A stretch of 64,000 bases of DNA from Pseudoxanthomonas sp. PXM02 (lineage in GTDB: Bacteria; Pseudomonadota; Gammaproteobacteria; Xanthomonadales; Xanthomonadaceae), in NCBI RefSeq assembly GCF_014851805.1, contig NZ_JACVAK010000001.1:372001-436000 (forward strand), given 5' to 3'. The position numbers and the translations under genes are program-made. The notes beneath the pieces were generated by a model that did no database searches, was not told where the DNA came from, and worked only from the letters and a program-made list of their open reading frames with translations. Of this stretch, positions 1 through 7,680 are shown piece after piece. Each line of letters begins with the position of its first letter. Positions within the stretch are counted from its first letter, which is position 1.

Positions 1-393
1 CAGGAACTGGTTGATGCGCGCGCGATCGATGTCCACCGCGTTGTCCGCGCGCATCTCGCGCCCGGTGCGCTGCAGCGACTGCAGCGTGGCGTCGTAATCG
101 TTCTGTCCCAGTTCCAGCGTGGCCCTATCCGGATGCGCACGCGCCCAGGTCTGGTAGCTGTCCAGCAGGTCGCGCGCCACGTCGGGATGCTGTCCCAGAT
201 CGATCTGCAACGTGCCGAACGAGTAACCGCTGTTGGCCACCGGTTCCATGCGCCCGCCCGCGCCGACGTTGCCGGCGAAGCTCAGGCGGTACGCGACATC
301 ACGGCCCGCGATGCTGCCTTCCGAGGTGACGCCCACCGCGAAGTACGCCGCGGCCTGCAGTTCGTTGTCGGTCAGGGGATTCGGATTGGTCAT
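1..393 (-). CDS. N-terminal part of putative antibacterial effector (partial, runs off the window)
   Basis: The first 131 codons are visible and the gene continues past base 1. The ATG at 393 has a clear AAAGGAG Shine-Dalgarno seven bases upstream and overlaps the stop of the upstream lipoprotein gene as ATGA, so the two are translationally coupled. The fragment has no signal peptide. It opens with a short acidic-polar stretch, then AAYFAVGVTSEG, and a glycine-rich NSGYSFGTLQIDLGQHP segment that looks like the start of a muramidase-like fold. In Xanthomonas, type IV secretion effectors (X-Tfe) are cytoplasmic proteins encoded next to a lipoprotein immunity gene and carry a C-terminal XVIPCD export domain. 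That C-terminus would lie outside the window, so the assignment is inference from gene order and the N-terminus. An unrelated peptidoglycan-binding protein is the alternative. Confidence 0.6.
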   Translation of the reverse strand, partial: MTNPNPLTDNELQAAAYFAVGVTSEGSIAGRDVAYRLSFAGNVGAGGRMEPVANSGYSFGTLQIDLGQHPDVARDLLDSYQTWARAHPDRATLELGQNDYDATLQSLQRTGREMRADNAVDIDRARINQFL

Positions 394-977
394 GATCCCG
401 CTCCTTTGGGGGCCACGTCAGGGTCGCGCGCCAGGCATGCCTGCATCCACGGTTCCGCCTGCAAGGCGACGCGTGCTTCGTCGGCCAGCGGCACGGACTG
501 GTAGTCGGCGAAGCAGCTGCCATCGGCGCGCGTCATGTCGCCGAGCTTGCCATCGCAAATCCGCAACGGCTTATCGACGGTCTGCCAGCCGTTTTCGCAT
601 TCGGTATCGGTCTCGGAGCCGGGACGACCGCACACGTGCGTGCGCTTCGCCTCTGTGGGCGACGTGGCACGCGCGATGATCCTGCCTGAGTAACTTTTTC
701 CGGTTGCGAAATAGGACCAGGTGCCGCAGATGCGGTCACCCTGTTGCAGCAGCACGTAGCGGCCGCATTCCTCGGGCGCGTTCGTGCCTTCGCACGCTTC
801 CCATTGCCCTGCGAACGCACCGCCCGCTTGCGGTGTTTCAGGTACCGCGTCGGGTACGGCGGCGACTTCCTGCGCCACGGGTTCCGCGGATGTTTCCGCT
901 TCACTCCCCGCCTGTCCGTTGCCGGCGCCCGTACAGGCCACAAGACCCAGCAACATCACCATCATCGAACTACGCAT
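390..977 (-). CDS. Putative immunity lipoprotein (X-Tfi-like)
   Basis: A 195-residue lipoprotein. The signal peptide ends in a LVAC lipobox (Cys15), so it is probably anchored in the outer membrane facing the periplasm. A linker rich in Ala, Glu and Pro follows to about residue 50. The conserved domain then begins with FAGQWEACEG and carries several cysteines (CEG, ECGRY, RICGTW, HVCGR, RICDGK, SCFADY, ACLAR), which suggests disulfides. It is the upstream partner of the effector-like gene, sharing an ATGA overlap, the arrangement expected of a cognate inhibitor protecting the producer's periplasm. A paralogue lies at 1653-2153. The catalytic target of the partner is unknown, so the inhibitor role is inferred from context. 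The lipoprotein call itself is firm. Confidence 0.72.
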   Translation of the reverse strand: MRSSMMVMLLGLVACTGAGNGQAGSEAETSAEPVAQEVAAVPDAVPETPQAGGAFAGQWEACEGTNAPEECGRYVLLQQGDRICGTWSYFATGKSYSGRIIARATSPTEAKRTHVCGRPGSETDTECENGWQTVDKPLRICDGKLGDMTRADGSCFADYQSVPLADEARVALQAEPWMQACLARDPDVAPKGAGS

Positions 978-1156
978 CCAGAATCCCTCCCGACCGGCGT
1001 TGACCGATGCTACGACGCGACTACATCACCGACAACCACGTACATTCATGGACGTGATGAGCTGCTTCAGATTGATGATGACGACGACGCGTCGCGACGC
1101 GCGTTGCTGCATGCGTTTACCACGTTGGATGTTTGTCCCTCACGAACACGAGGCAC

Positions 1157-1286
1157 GTAAGGCGGGCCTTGGCCCGCCATCGCGGACCATCCCGCATCGT
1201 GAAAGCTCATCGGCGAACGCGCGCGATGTTCCGCCGACCAACATCGAAACGGACACATCCACATGGCGGGCTTGAGCCCGCTCTAC
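1157..1286. repeat. GTAG-type REP doublet, copy 1
   Basis: Two inverted palindromes face each other about 85 bases apart. The left one starts GTAAGGCGGGCC and folds on itself through GGCCCGCC (1157-1178). The right one is GGCGGGCTTGAGCCCGC followed by CTAC (1265-1286). The head tetranucleotide and inward-facing pair are typical of bacterial interspersed mosaic REP elements mobilised by RAYT transposases. No RAYT gene is in the window. Confidence 0.8.
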
Positions 1287-1349
1287 GCCCGCTGACCCGC
1301 AGGTTGCGACGGATGCGATGGCGTCGCGCATGATCAGGCACTGCGTTCG

Positions 1350-1472
1350 CCCCTCATCCGCCCTCCGGGCACCTTCTCCCCGCATGCGGGGAGAAGGAAC
1401 CAGCAAGACGCATCGGTCGTTCCCTTCTCCCCGTGCAACGGGGAGAAGGTGCCGAAGGCGGATGAGGGGCGC
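1350..1472. repeat. CCTTCTCCCC-family palindrome doublet
   Basis: Two hairpins in opposite orientation: CACCTTCTCCCCGCATGCGG with its closing arm near 1368-1398, and CCCTTCTCCCCGTGCAACGG with its closing arm near 1424-1452. Each is flanked by a GGCGGATGAGGGG-type tail. The same family recurs at 6774-6944 and inside the icmF gene at 11215-11335. Confidence 0.78.
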
Positions 1473-1505
1473 TCTACCGTCCGCGTACGCGATCCACCAG
1501 GTTTC

Positions 1506-1637
1506 GTAGGGCGGGCCTTGGCCCGCCGTCGCGGACACCCCGCCATCAAGATGCCTTGTCGAGAAACGCTGCGGCGATGTTTCGCCCGGCAACACCGCAA
1601 CGGAGGCATCAACACGGCGGGCCAAGGCCCGCCCTAC
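1506..1637. repeat. GTAG-type REP doublet, copy 2
   Basis: Left palindrome GTAGGGCGGGCC with GGCCCGCC at 1506-1527; right palindrome GGCGGGCCAAGGCCCGCC with terminal CTAC at 1617-1637. The spacer between the palindromes resembles those of copies 1 and 3 (shared pieces such as GCGATGTTTCG and GAGGCATCA), so the whole ~130-bp unit seems to move as one element. Confidence 0.82.
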
Positions 1638-1652
1638 ACAGCTGTGTTTACG

Positions 1653-2153
1653 TCACGGCTCGCCCGACAGGCATGCCTGCATCCACGGCTCCGCCAGCAA
1701 GGCATCGTGCGCATCGTCGGCCAGAGGAACGGATTGGTAATAGGCGAAGCAGCTTCCATCGGCGCGCGTGCTGTCGCTGAGTTTTCCATCGCAGATCCGC
1801 AGCGGTTTGTCGATGCGCTGCCAGCCGTCGTCGCATTCGGTATTGGTCTCGACGCTCTTACGACCGCACACGTGCGTGCGTCGCGCCTGCGTGGACGCGT
1901 CCACGTGCGCGACGATCCTGCCGCTGTACTCTTTTCCGGTGGCGAAATGGAACCAGGTACCGCAGATGCGGTTGCCCCGTTGCAGCAGCACGTAGCGGCT
2001 GCACTGATCCGGCGGGGTCTCGCCGTGGCAGGCCGCCCATTCACCGGCGAATGCACCGTTCGACGCGGATGACGCCGCATCGCTACCCGCTTTCGTGCCC
2101 AGTCCCGTGCAGGCCACCAGACCCAGCACCATCACCATCGTCCACGTGCGCAT
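1653..2153 (-). CDS. Putative immunity lipoprotein paralogue (X-Tfi-like)
   Basis: A 166-residue paralogue of the lipoprotein at 390-977. I chose the ATG at 2153 because it begins the signal peptide (LVAC lipobox) and has a GGAAGGGAG Shine-Dalgarno eight bases upstream; the longer in-frame extension has neither. The mature domain matches its paralogue closely: FAGEWAACHG, CSRYVLLQRGNRICGTW, ATGKEYSGRI, THVCGR, DKPLRICDGKLSD, RADGSCFAYYQSVPLADD, AEPWMQACL. The linker after the lipobox is much shorter. No effector gene lies downstream, only repeats, so this looks like an orphan immunity gene or a duplicate that lost its partner. A role in protection against sibling effectors is inference. Confidence 0.72.
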   Translation of the reverse strand: MRTWTMVMVLGLVACTGLGTKAGSDAASSASNGAFAGEWAACHGETPPDQCSRYVLLQRGNRICGTWFHFATGKEYSGRIVAHVDASTQARRTHVCGRKSVETNTECDDGWQRIDKPLRICDGKLSDSTRADGSCFAYYQSVPLADDAHDALLAEPWMQACLSGEP

Positions 2154-2202
2154 ACAGACTCCCTTCCGATCAGCGTTGCCCCATGGTACGTCGCATCGCC
2201 TC

Positions 2203-2308
2203 GTAGGGCGGCCCTTGGCCCGCCATCGTGGTCGATCCGACAACGTGATGCCCCGTCGGGACGTACCGCGGCGGAGGCATCAGGACGGTGGGCCAAGGCC
2301 CACCCTAC
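2203..2308. repeat. GTAG-type REP doublet, copy 3
   Basis: Left palindrome GTAGGGCGGCCCTTGGCCCG at 2203-2223; right palindrome GGTGGGCCAAGGCCCACC with CTAC ending at 2308. It sits between two leftward genes, immediately after the stop codon of the amidohydrolase gene. Confidence 0.8.
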
Positions 2309-2309
2309 G

Positions 2310-3149
2310 TCATCGCCCGAACAGCTTCATCGCATTGCCGCTGCGGATCTTCGCCTTCTCTTCGTCGCTCAGGTCCAGGCGATCCAGCGCCTTGGCGGTG
2401 ACGTCCAGGCCGATCTGCGGATAGTCGGAGCCCAGCAGCACGTGGTCGAGGCCGACGTTGCGCAGGGTCCACAGGAATTCTTCTTCCACCGGCGAATCGG
2501 CCACCACCAGCACGGTGGCGGAGATGTCGAAGTAGAGGTTCTCGAAGCCGAAGCCGTCGGCGGTGCGTGCGAGGGCGAGGATGTTCCAGAAGCGGAAGTT
2601 GAGGCCGCCGATGTGGGCGAGGATGAACTTCGTCTTCGGTACGCGCACGACCAGGTTAAACAGTTTTTCGCTGTCGCCGGGCAGGATGTTGGCGTTGTCC
2701 ATCAGCACGGTGACGCCGAGTTCGCCGGCGCGGCGCGCGAGGGTTTCCACGCGCGGATCGGACACGTCGAAGCCCTGGGTGTGGGCGTGGATCTTCAGCA
2801 CCTTCACGCCGGCCGCGGCCACGCGCGCCAGTTCGGCCAGGGCGTTGTCGCCGTCGTAGGGGTGCACGGTGGCGATGGGCAGCACGTCGGGATGGGCGGC
2901 GGCCAGGGCGATGACGCGGTCGTTGCCGGCGCTGATCTTGGCCAGGTCGCCCTGCCGGGCCTGGTGGGGGCCGCCGAACCACATCACGCCGATGCCGGAC
3001 AGTTCCAGCCCGGCCGCGCGGACGTCGTTGCGGTACTGCTGCAGGGAGGTTTCGCCGTCGCGCAGGTGGACGTGCACGTCGAAGACGGGGTTCGCGGCCA
3101 GGGTGTTGGCGGTGAACAGGCAGAGGGTCAGGGCCAGCAGTCGCCGCAT
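2310..3149 (-). CDS. Exported amidohydrolase-family protein (TIM barrel)
   Basis: A 279-residue protein. The ATG at 3149 begins a classic signal peptide (MRRLLALTLCLFTANTLA), so the enzyme is probably periplasmic; the longer open frame is proline/arginine-rich and non-coding in look. The mature start FDVHVHLRDGE holds the HxH metal-binding pair of the amidohydrolase-2 superfamily. Later hallmarks are KILKIHAHTQGF-like strand 5 (VLKIHAH), the FILAHIGG histidine, and LLGSDYPQ, the catalytic aspartate near the C-terminus. The substrate cannot be told; relatives include decarboxylases and lactonases. The gene stands alone, bounded by a REP doublet on its 3' side and a repeat array upstream. Confidence 0.8.
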   Translation of the reverse strand: MRRLLALTLCLFTANTLAANPVFDVHVHLRDGETSLQQYRNDVRAAGLELSGIGVMWFGGPHQARQGDLAKISAGNDRVIALAAAHPDVLPIATVHPYDGDNALAELARVAAAGVKVLKIHAHTQGFDVSDPRVETLARRAGELGVTVLMDNANILPGDSEKLFNLVVRVPKTKFILAHIGGLNFRFWNILALARTADGFGFENLYFDISATVLVVADSPVEEEFLWTLRNVGLDHVLLGSDYPQIGLDVTAKALDRLDLSDEEKAKIRSGNAMKLFGR

Positions 3150-3310
3150 GCGTCGTCTCACAGGTCTCGGGGTGGGCACAGGGTGCCATGGGGAGCTGTG
3201 AGGGGGTCGTTCGGTGGGCGGTCCGCGGGGGAACGGCAGGTGGGGCAAGGCGCTGCGCGCGGGTGCGGTGCGTGCTGGCGGGCAATGTGAGGTTTACCGG
3301 TCTCGCACGG

Positions 3311-3710
3311 GGCTTTTTTTAATGACGCGAGGCTTTTTGGGCCAGCGTCGGGGCTTTGAGAGCGGCGCGAGAGGCTTTTCGTGCCAGCGTCGGAGCCCGG
3401 TAGAGGCGCGCGCGGCTCTTTTTGCTCCAACGTCGGGGCTCGGTAGAGCCAAGCGAGGCTCTTTTTGCCCGGGCGTTGGGTCTTAGTGAGAGACGGCTGG
3501 CTCTTTTTGCTCCGGCATCGGGGCTTAGTGAGAGACGGCTGGCTCTTTTTGCTACAACGCCGGGGCTCAGTAGAGCCACGGGAGGCTCTTTTTGCTCCGT
3601 CGTTGGGATTTAGTGTGAGACAGCTGGGTCTTTTTGCTCCGGCGATGGGGCTTAGTGAGAGACGGTCGGCTCTTTTTGCTCCGGCGGTGGGGCTTTGTGT
3701 GAGAGGAGGT
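3311..3710. repeat. Tandem 41-43 bp minisatellite, about nine units
   Basis: Units start with GGCTCTTTTTG or a close variant at 3331, 3373, 3414, 3457, 3499, 3541, 3584, 3626 and 3668, with a partial unit at 3311. Spacing is 42, 41, 43, 42, 42, 43, 42 and 42. The unit core reads GCTCCGGC-N-TCGGGGCTTAGT followed by GAGAGACGGCT or TAGAGCC. At least two junctions form hairpins AGAGCC/GGCTCT followed by T5 (3445-3466 and 3572-3593). There are no unique spacers. Confidence 0.85.
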
Positions 3711-3740
3711 CCCTTTGGGCGGACTCAAGCCCCCCTCATA

Positions 3741-3764
3741 TCGGTGTGCCAGGGCCCGCCCTAC
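3741..3764. repeat. Degenerate REP half-palindrome
   Basis: GTGTGCCAGGGCCCGCCCTAC matches the right-hand end of the GTAG-REP doublets (GGCCAAGGCCCGCCCTAC) with several mismatches. No intact left partner is seen. Confidence 0.5.
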
Positions 3765-3840
3765 GCCCCCTCCATCACTACCTCTGCATCCCGGTGAACT
3801 TTCAAGCATAAAGCGGGCTAAAGCCTGCCTTAAGGGCAGG

Positions 3841-3871
3841 AAAAAACTCCAGTAGTCTCAGAACACTACTG
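3841..3871 (-). terminator. Intrinsic terminator of the KAP NTPase gene
   Basis: On the minus strand CAGTAGT pairs with ACTACTG around an 8-base loop and is followed by GAG and six T residues. The stop codon TAG of the ATPase gene lies inside the left arm. Confidence 0.7.
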
Positions 3872-5731
3872 CTCAGCATTCCCCGCATCAGTGCCAGGGA
3901 AATTCCGCTCCATTTCCAGAAAAGCCGCCACGTTACTGTCGAGCGAACGCAGCATCGTTGCCAACTCAATCAGCTGAGACTGCATAAGCGAAAGATCGCC
4001 TTCAGTGGGCAAACCTTTCTCGACTCCTGTTGCTATAGCGCTCAGAAGCGAAACTTCTTGCCTAAGATTTGAACCTACGCCAGCAACCCGGCTACGGGCG
4101 CTCAAAAGCCTCAGAACCTCCTGAATCCTCGCTGGACTCGCGCTCCTAAACGCAGAAATCCATTCTTCGACCTCATCTACAAACAAAGGCGCCAATAACC
4201 ATTCACTCTTCAAATCGACAACGCTATCCGAGTCGCCATCAAGCCACCTTCGAACAGCCTGCCTTTGCTTACTCAAGCTATCCTCCATTGATTCGGCTAT
4301 CTTTTTTCTAACAGCCTCCTCAACATCAACATCCGAGTCGTCCATCTGCTTCTGAAACCAGAATACATCCGTGTCAGCACTCGGATCCAAGAGCTCACCA
4401 GCAGGTATTCCATCAATTGCTGAAATACAAAGCTTGGCAACATCATCAGGGCTCATCGAAATTATCCTTCGTTGAGCCCAATACCTCATCGAGACATAAA
4501 TTCTAACAACCGCACTAACTGACCTAAACTCACTCCCACTGAGCCTTCCTTTAATATAATCAAACTGGGCATCGAACTCAGCCTGAGAGAAATCAAAGGC
4601 GCTGAAACTAAGTACAGACATGCCATCAACTTCTCCCGCAGATTTTACATCCTCACGCGCAGAGCTAATTTCCATGAAGCCATCAATCAACAACTTGGCA
4701 TCGAAAATTCCATTTGCGTAAAAATTGTAAAAAACCAATCCTCCATTAAAATTTATTATCTCAGTTCCCGCATATCGATCGAAAATTATCTCTACAAAAT
4801 CTTTCTCATTTTTATTCCCACTAGAATCCAATCCCTTACTAGTTACAGCCTCGTACGCAACCCTTAGATCCGAATGAGAGAACAGATCAGCGATTCGCAA
4901 CGTACACGAGGCATTCCTCTTTATTTCAAGCAGCCCAACTAGAATGCCCTCAACAAGAACTTCCTTCTTGTAGTTCATTCCATCATAAGAATCACCAATT
5001 AATTCAATAACCTTGCCAATCTCACGAATAGAATGCTTAACCGCACGAAAACTCTTTAAATCAGATTTTGAAACTACGCCTACTAAAGAGTTCCGCAGAG
5101 CCTTGAGTCGGTCAGCAGCGAACTTACTAGCGATCTCGGTTAAAGCAGCATCAACCATGTCCTCGGGAGACGGATTCAATCGGACAGTGCGACCAACGAC
5201 TTTCTCCTTCCACTCACCAAGATAACTAGATGAGCTCAAAAGCTTCTTCTCCGATGAGACGACCACAACATGGATTCCGTTGTTATCCACAAGATCAATT
5301 ACAAAACCAAGGATAATTCGTTGATCGCCAGCAAACCTCTCAATATCATCAACAAAAACAACAACTTTCTCTGAACTAATATCCGCTTTGAGCTTCAGTT
5401 CACTCGGCTCGATATTCACCCAGCGCATGGCAGCCCTTGTAAAAACACCCAGCGCCTCTGCATACCCATTGTCAAGTATAGGAGCTGACGCAAAGAACAG
5501 GGCGCGCTCCAGATCACTTCTACTTTCAAGGCCAGCAACGGAAAAAGAAATACAGCGCTTATTTGCTCGTGCCGCGATCCGAGATCCCCGAGTTCGAAGA
5601 TAATGCGTCTTCCCTGCCCCCCAGTCCCCCTCGATCATCATTGAGACAAATGGGGCCTTCTCATTCAGATACTCAAGAAGTGCCAGATCTATTGGACTCA
5701 GATCGCCCAAGCCATCCACATCCTTCTTCAT
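3866..5731 (-). CDS. KAP-family P-loop NTPase, probable horizontally acquired gene
   Basis: A 621-residue cytosolic ATPase. Walker A is GDWGAGKT (residues 35-42) and Walker B is VVVFVDDIER (123-132), the signature of KAP NTPases within the STAND/AAA-like P-loop group. The C-terminal ~400 residues are helical with no recognised domain and no membrane segment. The ATG at 5731 has GGAGG four bases upstream; an in-frame GTG at 5806 has AGGAGG at seven bases, and the frame stays open to an ATG at 5854. The gene is much richer in A+T than its neighbours (18 G/C among the 60 bases 4741-4800). KAP ATPases occur in phage-exclusion and defence loci, and a lone AT-rich gene next to repeats fits that, but the function here is inference. 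Confidence 0.75.
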   Translation of the reverse strand: MKKDVDGLGDLSPIDLALLEYLNEKAPFVSMMIEGDWGAGKTHYLRTRGSRIAARANKRCISFSVAGLESRSDLERALFFASAPILDNGYAEALGVFTRAAMRWVNIEPSELKLKADISSEKVVVFVDDIERFAGDQRIILGFVIDLVDNNGIHVVVVSSEKKLLSSSSYLGEWKEKVVGRTVRLNPSPEDMVDAALTEIASKFAADRLKALRNSLVGVVSKSDLKSFRAVKHSIREIGKVIELIGDSYDGMNYKKEVLVEGILVGLLEIKRNASCTLRIADLFSHSDLRVAYEAVTSKGLDSSGNKNEKDFVEIIFDRYAGTEIINFNGGLVFYNFYANGIFDAKLLIDGFMEISSAREDVKSAGEVDGMSVLSFSAFDFSQAEFDAQFDYIKGRLSGSEFRSVSAVVRIYVSMRYWAQRRIISMSPDDVAKLCISAIDGIPAGELLDPSADTDVFWFQKQMDDSDVDVEEAVRKKIAESMEDSLSKQRQAVRRWLDGDSDSVVDLKSEWLLAPLFVDEVEEWISAFRSASPARIQEVLRLLSARSRVAGVGSNLRQEVSLLSAIATGVEKGLPTEGDLSLMQSQLIELATMLRSLDSNVAAFLEMERNFPGTDAGNAEQ

Positions 5732-5883
5732 ACATCCTCCATTTCTGTACGATTGTCTTCGGGCTTCTTTACTGCTGCCGCCAGAAGTACCTGATTTTGC
5801 CGGCACTTGCCCGCCTCCTGTATTGTTACGCCTAACCTGATAATTTCCGCTCATATGAAGCGCTCGCCCCCCGACGCCCCAGC

Positions 5884-6759
5884 ATGACCGATGCGCCGAG
5901 CCGCGCGCGCGCGGCGTTGCTACACCCGCTGGACAGGGAAGATCGCCACATCAAGCGGAACGAGCGCAGCATCGCCTCCCTGGTGAGCCTGCTGGTGCAC
6001 CTGCTGTTCGTGGCCGCCCTGCTGTACTCCTCCAAGATGGAACTGGCCCAGCCCGAGAGCGCCAGCGCCGGCGGCGCGCGCGTCAAGGTCGACTTCCTGG
6101 GCGACCCCACCGACGCCACCCCCAACCCGCCCGTTCCCCCGACCGGCACCCGCAACCCCAGCGAACGCCCCAAGCCCCTCAAGCCGCTGGTGACCACCCC
6201 CGTCAAATCGCCCGTCGACACCACCCGCGTGACCGAGGCCGAGAACCCCGTCGCCCCCGACGAATCCCGACCCCAGCCCCCCGCCAGCCAACAGGCCGTC
6301 GCCCCGCCCCAGGACCGCGCCCCCGCCAGCCCACCCGCCTGGCGCCGCTCCGCCCGCTGGGGCCAGCCCCCCGGCATGCTCGCCCAGGACACCGCCCCCG
6401 ATAACTACGGCCCCACCGTCGGCGCCGGCCAACGTCAGGGCAACAACCAGGGCAACGCCGCCAACCCCAGCATGGAAGTGGACGGCCATCAGATCTATTA
6501 CGACCTGCGCAACGAACGGAAGATCGCCGAATGGCAGCTGCAGGGCATGAAGGAAATCTTCTTTCCCCTGCCCGGCCGCAGTGACCTGATGGTCTGCGCC
6601 CTGGAGATCGTGGCCACCCGCGGCTCCGGCGGCTGCCGCCTGGTGCAACCCGGCGACCCGCAACTGGAAACCATCGGCGACGCCCGCGACGTGGTGGACG
6701 TGATGCGCATCTACCGCCGCGGCGAACTGATCTGGCGCGGCCCGGGCATGTACCGCTAG
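5884..6759 (+). CDS. Single-pass inner-membrane protein with proline-rich periplasmic linker (TonB-like architecture)
   Basis: A 291-residue protein. A basic N-terminus (residues 1-27) is followed by one membrane helix (ASLVSLLVHLLFVAALLYSS, about 31-50). A long Pro/Ala/Thr-rich stretch (about 75-165) would span periplasm. A globular C-terminal domain (about 195-291) starts EVDGHQIYYDLRNERKIAEWQLQGMKEIFFPLPG and has two cysteines (VCALEI, GGCRLV). The overall plan resembles TonB or TolA, but there is no Y-P TonB box binder motif and no exbB/exbD nearby. A role as an envelope-spanning linker is inference. It converges on the next gene across a repeat-filled gap. Confidence 0.65.
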   Translation: MTDAPSRARAALLHPLDREDRHIKRNERSIASLVSLLVHLLFVAALLYSSKMELAQPESASAGGARVKVDFLGDPTDATPNPPVPPTGTRNPSERPKPLKPLVTTPVKSPVDTTRVTEAENPVAPDESRPQPPASQQAVAPPQDRAPASPPAWRRSARWGQPPGMLAQDTAPDNYGPTVGAGQRQGNNQGNAANPSMEVDGHQIYYDLRNERKIAEWQLQGMKEIFFPLPGRSDLMVCALEIVATRGSGGCRLVQPGDPQLETIGDARDVVDVMRIYRRGELIWRGPGMYR

Positions 6760-6773
6760 ACACGGCACCGCCT

Positions 6774-6944
6774 TTCCCTTCTCCCCGTGCAACGGGGAGA
6801 AGGTGCCCGGAGGGCGGATGAGGGGCAGAGCGCGGTTCGTCATCGGGCGCCCAACCATCCCCACCCCGTTCGCCCCTCACCCGCCCCCGTATCAAGTACG
6901 GGGCAGGCTCCGGCCACCCTCTCCCCGCTGCGCGGGGCGAGGGG
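6774..6944. repeat. CCTTCTCCCC-family palindromes between convergent genes
   Basis: Two hairpins fill the gap between the convergent genes ending at 6759 and 6967: CCCTTCTCCCCGTGC with its arm CGGGGAGAAGG at 6776-6803, and CCCTCTCCCCGCTGCG with CGGGGCGAGGGG at about 6917-6944. They may act as a bidirectional transcription barrier. Confidence 0.7.
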
Positions 6945-6966
6945 AACGCCGCCGCATCGCATGCCC

Positions 6967-7680
6967 TCAGAACATCAGCTGCACATCCAGCAAGAGCTTC
7001 TCGCTCAGCCTGTCGCGATGGAACTCCGATGGCAGAGGCTGGCAGGGCGGCAGCGAACGTAGCGCCCGCACGAACACCTCATCCCGCTTGGCCTGCTCGC
7101 GCGACGTTCCGTCGGCACGATTGATCGCGTCCGTCGAGGCACCGTAGAGGCGGCCATCGAATCCCAGGTGCACCCACACGCTCAGCACCGCCGTGTCGGG
7201 ACGCGCCACATGCGCCGGCAACGGTGTCACGGCCCAATGCCGCAGGCAGCCACGAACGAACGCCTGGCGCCCGGCTAACACGGCCGGCGACGGCGGCGGC
7301 GGTTGCGCCCGCGGCACGTTGTCGGACGCACGGAACACCAGCTTCAGCTCAGGCACGAACACGACCTCATAGCCGAGATACGGCAAGCTGCCCACCTTGA
7401 CGAGCGCATCTTCGACCGACTGCCGGGCAGCCGCATCGTACGGACAGTCAGGCAGGATCTTGAACCGCTCGATCCGCCCACTCCGCTGCTGCCGCACGAA
7501 CACCGGACAGGCGACGCCCGACATGGCACTGGGCGGCCGTGTCCAGTGACGCCCGATCGCCGCATGGATCGCCTGCACATACTCGGCGCGACGCTCCGTC
7601 AGCGCGTCCTCGGGCACGGTCTGTGCCGACGCCTGCCACGCGATCGCGCATAGCCATGCCATGCCCAGCCACTGCTTCAT
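6967..7680 (-). CDS. Periplasmic protein with tandem TonB/TolA C-terminal-like domains
   Basis: A 237-residue protein with a cleavable signal peptide (MKQWLGMAWLCAIAWQASAQ). The first half matches the TolA/TonB C-terminal pattern: YVQAIHAAIGRHWTRPP, a cysteine pair around MSGVACPVFV and ILPDCPY, then an SVEDALVKVGSLPY helix and a closing strand ELKLVFRAS (to about residue 118). After a PPPP linker the second half repeats the theme: AFVRGCLRHWAV, LSVWVHLGFDGRLYGAS, RALRSLPPCQPLP, LLLDVQLMF. No membrane anchor is present, so this is a soluble or signal-peptide-tethered relative, not a working TonB. Function unknown. Confidence 0.68.
   Translation of the reverse strand: MKQWLGMAWLCAIAWQASAQTVPEDALTERRAEYVQAIHAAIGRHWTRPPSAMSGVACPVFVRQQRSGRIERFKILPDCPYDAAARQSVEDALVKVGSLPYLGYEVVFVPELKLVFRASDNVPRAQPPPPSPAVLAGRQAFVRGCLRHWAVTPLPAHVARPDTAVLSVWVHLGFDGRLYGASTDAINRADGTSREQAKRDEVFVRALRSLPPCQPLPSEFHRDRLSEKLLLDVQLMF

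What the first reader, a model, noticed from the sequence alone, without database searches (positions are those of the whole stretch)
3841..5854. Lone AT-rich KAP NTPase: candidate single-gene defence island
The gene contrasts sharply in base composition with all neighbours, has its own terminator, stands between a repeat array and a conserved gene, and encodes an intact Walker A/B KAP ATPase with a long uncharacterised C-terminal region and no membrane helices. KAP ATPases are known parts of phage-exclusion and defence systems (for example PifA and the Qat system), usually with partners. Here there are none.
Basis: partly seen in the sequence, partly recalled or inferred. Interest (0 to 1): 0.65.

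Follow-up and report, generated by a model that had tools for sequence, protein, structure and literature searches.

The report
Anti-phage gene hotspot holding KAP ATPase
A foreign-looking ATPase gene sits at a chromosomal spot where most related species carry a different probable anti-virus system, so it is very likely one more swappable phage-defence gene, although no activity has been shown.

Summary
An AT-rich (GC 0.46 in a ~0.67 window), intact, partnerless KAP NTPase gene lies at 3866-5731 (-), 621 aa, between a 42-bp tandem array and a TonB/TolA-like gene. It matches the PADLOC single-gene candidate family PDC-S49 over nearly its full length (E 1.3e-44) and is not QatA. Comparison with relatives strengthens the defence reading: the interval between the amidohydrolase gene (2310-3152) and the TonB-like gene (5884-6759) is a defence hotspot. 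Of 16 sites compared (window included), 12 hold defence-type cargo of nine kinds (KAP, PDC-M29, HEC-01, PrrC-like AAA_13, GmrSD, CBASS, NACHT, SIR2, and a less specific HNH nuclease), 3 hold unidentified sequence and 1 is empty. None of 37 other genomes of the genus has an orthologue. A second KAP allele sits at the same site in a probable congener filed as 'Nostoc', with saturated synonymous divergence although the flanking gene is similar. Mechanism is inferred only: a soluble NTPase switch with a helical C-terminal sensor. The distal edge of the cargo is bordered by GTAG-type REP palindromes and, in 10 of 15 genomes, a RAYT-type transposase lies in or near the site. Interest moderate; new member of a known kind.

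The parts
3866..5731 (-). KAP NTPase gene, 621 aa, PDC-S49 family (open frame extends to an upstream ATG at 5854)
5606..5629 (-). Walker A, GDWGAGKT (residues 35-42)
   Evidence: alignment of nine homologues
5336..5365 (-). Walker B and DDIER motif (residues 123-132)
   Evidence: D128, D129, E131, R132 invariant
3850..3871 (-). terminator-like hairpin followed by T-run; statistically weak
3743..3764 (-). GTAG-type REP palindrome (2 mismatches to the pattern) 102 bp beyond the KAP stop: distal edge of the cargo
3333..3704 (.). 42-bp tandem array, about 8.5 copies
2310..3152 (-). amidohydrolase-family gene, one conserved flank of the hotspot
   Evidence: PF04909 E 3.2e-29
5884..6759 (+). TonB/TolA-like gene, other conserved flank of the hotspot (weak family match, below the curated cutoff)
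   Evidence: NCBIfam TolA E 8.7e-4, 18.6 bits, cutoff 59; matched in 37 of 38 genus genomes
5855..5887 (+). short leader ORF overlapping the TonB-like start (MKRSPPDAPA*); near edge of the variable segment
   Evidence: upstream sequences of 15 loci compared by eye
1157..2308 (.). cluster of 10 GTAG-type REP hits (both strands, up to 3 mismatches; some palindromes counted twice) on the distal side of the hotspot

Best explanation
The gene is a single-gene, accessory anti-phage system of the PDC-S49 (KAP NTPase) family, occupying a chromosomal hotspot at which this group of species keeps exchanging one defence system for another. SHOWN: intact KAP motor with conserved Walker residues; no partner gene; presence/absence and replacement by other defence-type genes between fixed flanks; an empty site; a second, anciently diverged KAP allele at the same site and orientation. 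INFERRED: the protein is a soluble NTPase switch. The N-terminal ~240 residues bind and hydrolyse NTP; the helical C-terminal ~380 residues recognise a phage product or phage DNA; nucleotide-driven oligomerisation (as reported for the soluble KAP protein QatA, which binds DNA and forms a 7- or 8-mer) then blocks phage replication or stops the cell, without a separate nuclease or membrane pore. Also inferred: cargo is exchanged by recombination in the conserved flanks rather than by its own integrase.
For: PDC-S49 match over residues 59-622 of the 662-aa frame. Hotspot cargo: PADLOC at E<=1e-5 recognises 8 of the 12 sites submitted to it; Pfam adds G017, G013 and G012; the L033 KAP brings the total to 12 of 16 sites, or 11 if the unspecific HNH gene of G012 is not counted. 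Of 27 conserved flank proteins PADLOC at the same threshold finds one model, an amino-acid-transporter entry, in 2. Synteny control: of 227 gap comparisons in the neighbouring 40 kb of 10 genomes, 10 differ by more than 1 kb and the largest gap is 3.96 kb, against 0.25-13.5 kb at the hotspot. Rarity: 0 of 37 other genus genomes have an orthologue; 7 of 398 in the order (own genome included) have any relative at 1e-10. KAP alleles of window and L033: pS 0.75 and pN 0.256 against pS 0.30 and pN 0.062 for the amidohydrolase. Distant homologues: in G331 the KAP gene is next to a PDC-S06 gene, followed by a type IIG restriction enzyme; in G262 it is 4.5-6.7 kb from SngC/SngB. No integrase or DDE transposase among the 25 Pfam families shown (of 29 found) for 38 further ORFs from 10 of the sites.
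Against: No phage assay exists for this gene, and validation is pending for most PADLOC PDC families (PMC12988326, passages read). Many PADLOC ATPase models hit any ATPase of their class, so single hits are not specific. Three of 16 sites hold sequence that nothing recognised and one is empty. Of 8 neighbour ORFs of KAP relatives scanned, 3 had no PADLOC match; ORFs beside the relatives in G387 and G571 do not look like defence genes by eye (not scanned). The structure model is too poor to use (pLDDT 43.5), so nothing about the C-terminal region beyond 'helical' is supported, and even that weakly. In L033 the Walker A lysine is asparagine, which argues against NTP binding in that allele unless it is a sequencing error. 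The QatA precedent is itself weak: loss of QatA does not abolish Qat defence fully (PMC13279940, passages).
Confidence: 0.72

Rival explanations
1. The KAP gene is the surviving remnant of a multi-gene system such as qatABCD and no longer works alone.
For: Soluble KAP proteins are known as one of four genes in Qat (PMC13279940, passages); the window gene has no partner.
Against: QatA equivalog scores 12.4 bits against a cutoff of 600; the homologue at the same site in L033 is also alone, and homologues in G387 and G040 show no partner ORF common to them (by eye). The frame is intact with a conserved motor.
Confidence: 0.1
2. The gene excludes plasmids or other mobile DNA, or regulates its neighbour, rather than acting against phages.
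For: Defence hotspots also carry anti-plasmid genes (recalled); the gene is divergent from the TonB-like gene with 152 bp between the two starts.
Against: The TonB-like gene is matched in 36 of 37 other genomes, none of which has the KAP orthologue, so the KAP gene is not needed for it; most recognised cargo at the site is anti-phage by family.
Confidence: 0.12
3. The interval is simply a recombination-tolerant spot that collects AT-rich DNA, and the gene is neutral cargo on the way out.
For: Three of 16 sites carry unrecognised sequence, one (L041) with no chosen low-GC ORF over 93 aa next to the TonB-like gene; the L033 allele has an altered Walker A.
Against: Long intact frames of recognisable defence families at 12 of 16 sites, against PADLOC matches in 2 of 27 flank proteins.
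Confidence: 0.06

Closest known systems
PDC-S49 (PADLOC candidate single-gene family)
   Same: near full-length profile match, single gene, KAP motor
   Different: nothing tested; a full-text search for the name returned 0 papers (open-licence papers only)
Tmn (KAP-family transmembrane NTPase defence protein)
   Same: KAP NTPase acting against phages by itself, mechanism unexplored (PMC11846954, passages)
   Different: Tmn has two transmembrane domains; the window protein has none clear. No direct sequence comparison with Tmn was made
QatA of qatABCD
   Same: KAP NTPase with a C-terminal region of unknown homology; reported to bind DNA and form a 7- or 8-mer (PMC13279940, passages)
   Different: only a 37-residue P-loop match, E 0.02-0.045; flanking genes are not qatB, qatC or qatD
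Chromosomal defence hotspots, e.g. of E. coli
   Same: fixed flanks, diverse defensive cargo (PMC10121019, abstract and outline)
   Different: E. coli hotspots are mostly filled by mobile elements according to that abstract; here no integrase was seen and the edge is a REP/RAYT region

Membership tests
PDC-S49 | profile match over most of the model | tested here: met
   PDLC05031 E 1.3e-44, model 13-597 of 624
PDC-S49 | encoded as a single gene | tested here: met
   between the flanks the only other ORFs of 80 aa or more are overlapping shadow frames or lie in the repeat array; also alone in L033
PDC-S49 | anti-phage activity | not testable with these tools
   no assay; 0 papers name it
KAP P-loop NTPase | PF07693 above gathering score, Walker A and B | tested here: met
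   36.4 bits, cutoff 20; motifs
Tmn | two transmembrane domains in a KAP NTPase | tested here: not met
   one marginal hydrophobic stretch only, in the NTPase core
QatA / qatABCD | QatA equivalog score | tested here: not met
   12.4 bits against 600
QatA / qatABCD | qatB, qatC and qatD neighbours | tested here: not met
   seven window proteins between 390 and 9048 scanned with Pfam show no QueC domain; a TatD-nuclease hit to the amidohydrolase is insignificant, E 0.052
chromosomal defence hotspot | conserved flanks with different defence cargo in related genomes and an empty site | tested here: met
chromosomal defence hotspot | cargo brought by an integrative mobile element | tested here: inconclusive
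   no integrase family among the 25 of 29 shown for 38 ORFs of 10 sites; only IS200-type/RAYT transposases; not every ORF of every site was scanned

The most novel reading that the evidence does not exclude
The hotspot is tied to a REP/RAYT module: GTAG-type REP palindromes, mobilised by a resident RAYT transposase, mark the breakpoint and supply short repeated homology that lets one defence system be swapped for another without an integrase. REP/RAYT loci would then be general platforms for immune-gene turnover, and the two unrecognised cargos (G023, G027) would be new defence systems.
Probability: 0.12. Interest if true: 0.8.

Novelty: new member of a known kind. Interest (0 to 1): 0.5.

Why it matters
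It places an unvalidated candidate family (PDC-S49) in a position where relatives mostly keep defence systems, which is stronger evidence than domain resemblance. It also gives a compact hotspot, apparently without an integrase, that can be mined: each further genome of the group may yield one short cargo to test, including at least two that neither Pfam nor PADLOC recognised. The REP/RAYT border makes a concrete hypothesis about how such spots turn over.

Tried and rejected
Structure: an AlphaFold2 model from two sequences (window and L033) reached only pLDDT 43.5; no fold search was run because it would be meaningless. No PDB sequence relative by single sequence (E<=1) or by a profile of nine homologues (E<=0.1). 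Viral contigs: no relative for four KAP queries (this search finds close relatives only); none in plasmid records at 1e-10 or phage records at 1e-5. Rfam: nothing in 1000-7000 at E<=0.1.

Idea that the 42-bp arrays are specific to the hotspot: rejected, since related arrays occur at other loci, e.g. beside a beta-lactamase-like gene in G000 where I saw no defence gene by eye. Related arrays occur in 14 of 38 genus genomes, which are the 15 hotspot genomes without G021, the one with the empty site. Idea that cargo presence follows REP number: not consistent, since G023 has 4 REP hits and a cargo while G021 has 4 and none. QatA and Tmn membership: tested, not met.

Literature searches; no title or abstract in their listings concerned this hotspot or a REP/RAYT-defence link. 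Papers of which I saw passages only: PMC11846954, PMC10952713, PMC13279940, PMC12988326, PMC11514479, PMC8195603, PMC10853773, PMC3733652; of PMC10121019 abstract and outline.

Full report
WHAT IS THERE. The open frame on the minus strand at 3866-5854 is intact. The ATG at 5731 has a GGAGG upstream and coincides with the start of the closest homologue, so the protein is most likely 621 aa. Its GC is 0.46 (GC3 0.44); the 1-kb windows not centred on it are 0.62-0.71. Pfam finds a KAP NTPase domain (36.4 bits, cutoff 20). PADLOC finds the single-gene candidate family PDC-S49 over residues 59-622 (E 1.3e-44; residue numbers of the 662-aa frame). In a nine-sequence alignment G35, W37, G38, G40, D128, D129, E131, R132, R229 and R546 are among the invariant residues; K41 is kept in 8 of 9. 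The array at 3333-3704 is confirmed. The terminator is plausible but not beyond chance.

RARITY. In the 38 genomes of the genus searched, only the own genome has the gene; one other (G023) has a remote KAP relative (30% over residues 54-248) at another place. The TonB-like neighbour is matched in 37 of 38. In 398 genomes of the order 7, own included, have a relative at 1e-10; with the PDC-S49 profile 5 of 369 genomes of the class, own included, at 1e-20. No relative was found in plasmid (1e-10), phage (1e-5) or viral-contig collections (the last finds close relatives only).

THE SITE IS A HOTSPOT. I fetched the region on the KAP side of the TonB-like gene from 18 of the 37 congeners and used the 14 in which that gene is a close match. 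Four (L046, L047, L050, L051; TonB-like gene 42-48% identical, no amidohydrolase found there) were left out of the counts; the remaining 19 congeners were not fetched. With the window and L033 that makes 16 sites. L033 is a 4-kb contig filed as Nostoc sp. CHAB 5824, but its amidohydrolase is 87.5% identical in DNA to the window's and its first 80 bases read, by eye, as the start of the TonB-like gene, so I take it for a contaminating congener.

OCCUPANTS. Window: KAP (PDC-S49). L033: KAP. G018 and G007: an AAA_15/21 ATPase plus a small partner of PDC-M29 type (the ATPases score AriA models slightly higher; the partner of G018 matches only at 2.9e-5). G028: HEC-01A/B. G014: AAA_13, PDC-S06, PrrC-like. 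G019: GmrSD_N (NsnA and PD-T4-2_A models). G030: CBASS with two cyclases and a SLATT-type 2TM effector. G009: SIR2_2 (STAND part below cutoff). G013: SIR2_2 with nSTAND5. G017: NCH1 (3.1e-33) with Mrr_cat just above and NACHT below cutoff. G012: HNH endonuclease, a family not specific to defence. G023 (AAA_22/HHH below cutoffs, plus 253 aa) and G027 (751 + 235 aa): unrecognised. G032: no clear gene. G021: empty. That is 12 of 16 with defence-type cargo (11 without G012). The ORFs scanned were chosen by me as the low-GC ones next to the TonB-like gene. PADLOC was run on 12 of the 16 sites (not on L033, G012, G032, G021) and gave 8 at E<=1e-5; the negatives were G017, G013, G023 and G027. G012 and G030 have no amidohydrolase match in the genome, so there the site is defined by the TonB-like side only.

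CONTROLS. In the next 40 kb beyond the TonB-like gene, 25 adjacent conserved gene pairs in 10 of these genomes gave 227 gaps; 10 differ from the window by more than 1 kb (four of these look like a duplicate-gene mix-up in G028 and G023) and the largest gap is 3.96 kb. Amidohydrolase to TonB-like gaps run from 0.25 to about 13.5 kb. PADLOC at 1e-5 on 27 conserved flank proteins gave one model (an amino-acid transporter) in 2 of 27 (one of the 26 genes was left out and one was entered shortened). PADLOC's ATPase models are broad, so its hits to the ATPases are class-level evidence.

HISTORY OF THE KAP GENE. Window and L033 KAP proteins are 60% identical, with synonymous differences at saturation (pS 0.75) and pN 0.256; their amidohydrolases are 89% identical with pS 0.30 and pN 0.062. 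All 11 other amidohydrolases compared are nearer to the window by pS (0.18-0.28), though not all by pN (0.023-0.082), and none of those genomes has the KAP gene. GC3 differs strongly between the two genes (0.44 against 0.92), so pS values are not strictly comparable, but pN points the same way. The same pattern is seen for the PDC-M29A pair of G018 and G007: 29% identity and pS 0.74 against 91% and pS 0.26 for the amidohydrolase. The simplest reading is repeated independent arrival or exchange of divergent alleles, not vertical descent.

NEIGHBOURHOODS ELSEWHERE. I fetched eleven other regions with KAP relatives (seven, four; ORFs) and scanned eight neighbour ORFs from four of them (G331, G262, G327, G023); five of the eight matched PADLOC. 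G331: PDC-S06 adjacent, then a type IIG restriction enzyme. G262: SngC and SngB 4.5-6.7 kb away (a nearer ORF had no match). G327: an RmrA-like gene 5.7 kb away (the next ORF had no match). G023: no match. The relatives in G331 and G387 are themselves PDC-S49 (7e-44, 6e-41). Those in G387 and G571 have neighbours that do not look like defence genes by eye.

HOW IT MAY WORK. Shown: a conserved KAP motor, no clear membrane segments, no other domain found by Pfam above cutoff, a C-terminal region predicted mostly helical in a poor model. Inferred: a soluble NTP-driven oligomeric switch acting alone. The nearest functional precedents are Tmn, a KAP defence protein with two transmembrane domains and unexplored mechanism (PMC11846954, passages), and QatA, reported to bind single- and double-stranded DNA and to form 7- or 8-mers, although Qat keeps some defence without it (PMC13279940, passages). 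I give the soluble-switch mechanism about 0.35 and the defence role about 0.8.

EDGES OF THE HOTSPOT. On the TonB side the variable segment begins, by eye, within about 100 bp of the TonB-like ATG, just beyond a short leader ORF whose stop overlaps that ATG. On the other side, GTAG-type REP palindromes (up to 3 mismatches) lie 17-176 bp beyond the cargo gene in 10 of 12 loci measured (11 with a set cargo end plus L033; exceptions G007 and G030; in L049 the gene runs the other way; L039, L041 and L043 not measured, L040 empty). These REPs probably share descent, so the loci are not independent. In the own genome 15 of 43 REP hits (reversed-pattern control: 4) fall in 13.6 kb beside the hotspot, or 8 of 29 clusters; this stretch was chosen after seeing the positions. 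In other genomes (listing cut off within G019): G018 20 of 50 within 23 kb, G017 8 of 30 within 23 kb, but G013 only 1 of 21. A RAYT-type gene at 70% identity or more to the G032 copy lies inside the site in G032, G019, G017, G027, G009 and (fragment) G014, and within 12 kb of the amidohydrolase in G000, G018, G028 and G007: 10 of 15 genomes. In G012, G013, G021, G023 and G030 the best copy is 58% identical or less, or absent. Of four copies scanned only the G032 one passes Pfam Y1_Tnp (E 1.6e-5); the RAYT name for the others rests on similarity to it and on flanking REPs, an arrangement described in PMC3733652 (passages). Among 38 further ORFs from 10 sites the 25 Pfam families shown (of 29) include no integrase or DDE transposase. 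Whether the REP/RAYT region causes the exchange is unproven.

NAMES. The window's organism is not given; that it is a high-GC gammaproteobacterium of the Lysobacteraceae type is my recollection of such gene sets, not a result.

Noticed in passing
L033 253-2109: The second KAP allele has asparagine in place of the Walker A lysine (GEWGSGNT); an inactive allele or a sequencing error.
   Followed up: no
window 1157-2308 and G000 C4:362150-375764: Dense cluster of GTAG-type REP palindromes beside the hotspot, with a RAYT-type gene at C4:362304-362801 outside the window.
   Followed up: partly
G029 C5:414573, G005 C3:532499, G010 C4:105127: In three more distant congeners RAYT-type genes (66, 74 and 49% identical) lie 0.2-3.4 kb from the TonB-like gene, on its other side.
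   Followed up: no
window 5855-5887: Short proline-rich leader ORF whose stop overlaps the start of the TonB-like gene; similar ones in many congeners by eye.
   Followed up: no
L042 9890-12149 and L045 3132-6091: Unrecognised low-GC cargo genes at the hotspot (502+253 aa; 751+235 aa): candidates for undescribed defence systems.
   Followed up: partly
L046 7066-9446: A CBASS cyclase and phospholipase pair lies on the same side of a remote TonB-like gene in G005, so the hotspot may reach beyond this clade (left out of the counts).
   Followed up: no
window 3333-3704; L042 9136-9432; L044 8489-8895: Divergent 21/42-bp tandem arrays at the distal side of the cargo in 13 of 15 loci examined; related arrays elsewhere in 14 of 38 genus genomes.
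   Followed up: partly
L045 about 1989-2866: The TonB-like gene of G027 is split over frames, apparently frameshifted.
   Followed up: no
window 390-977 and 1653-2153: Two related small secreted or lipoprotein-like genes of unknown family; relatives lie near the site in many of the congeners examined.
   Followed up: no
L070 7969-11273: G023 has a separate remote KAP gene with a low-GC neighbour that PADLOC did not recognise.
   Followed up: no
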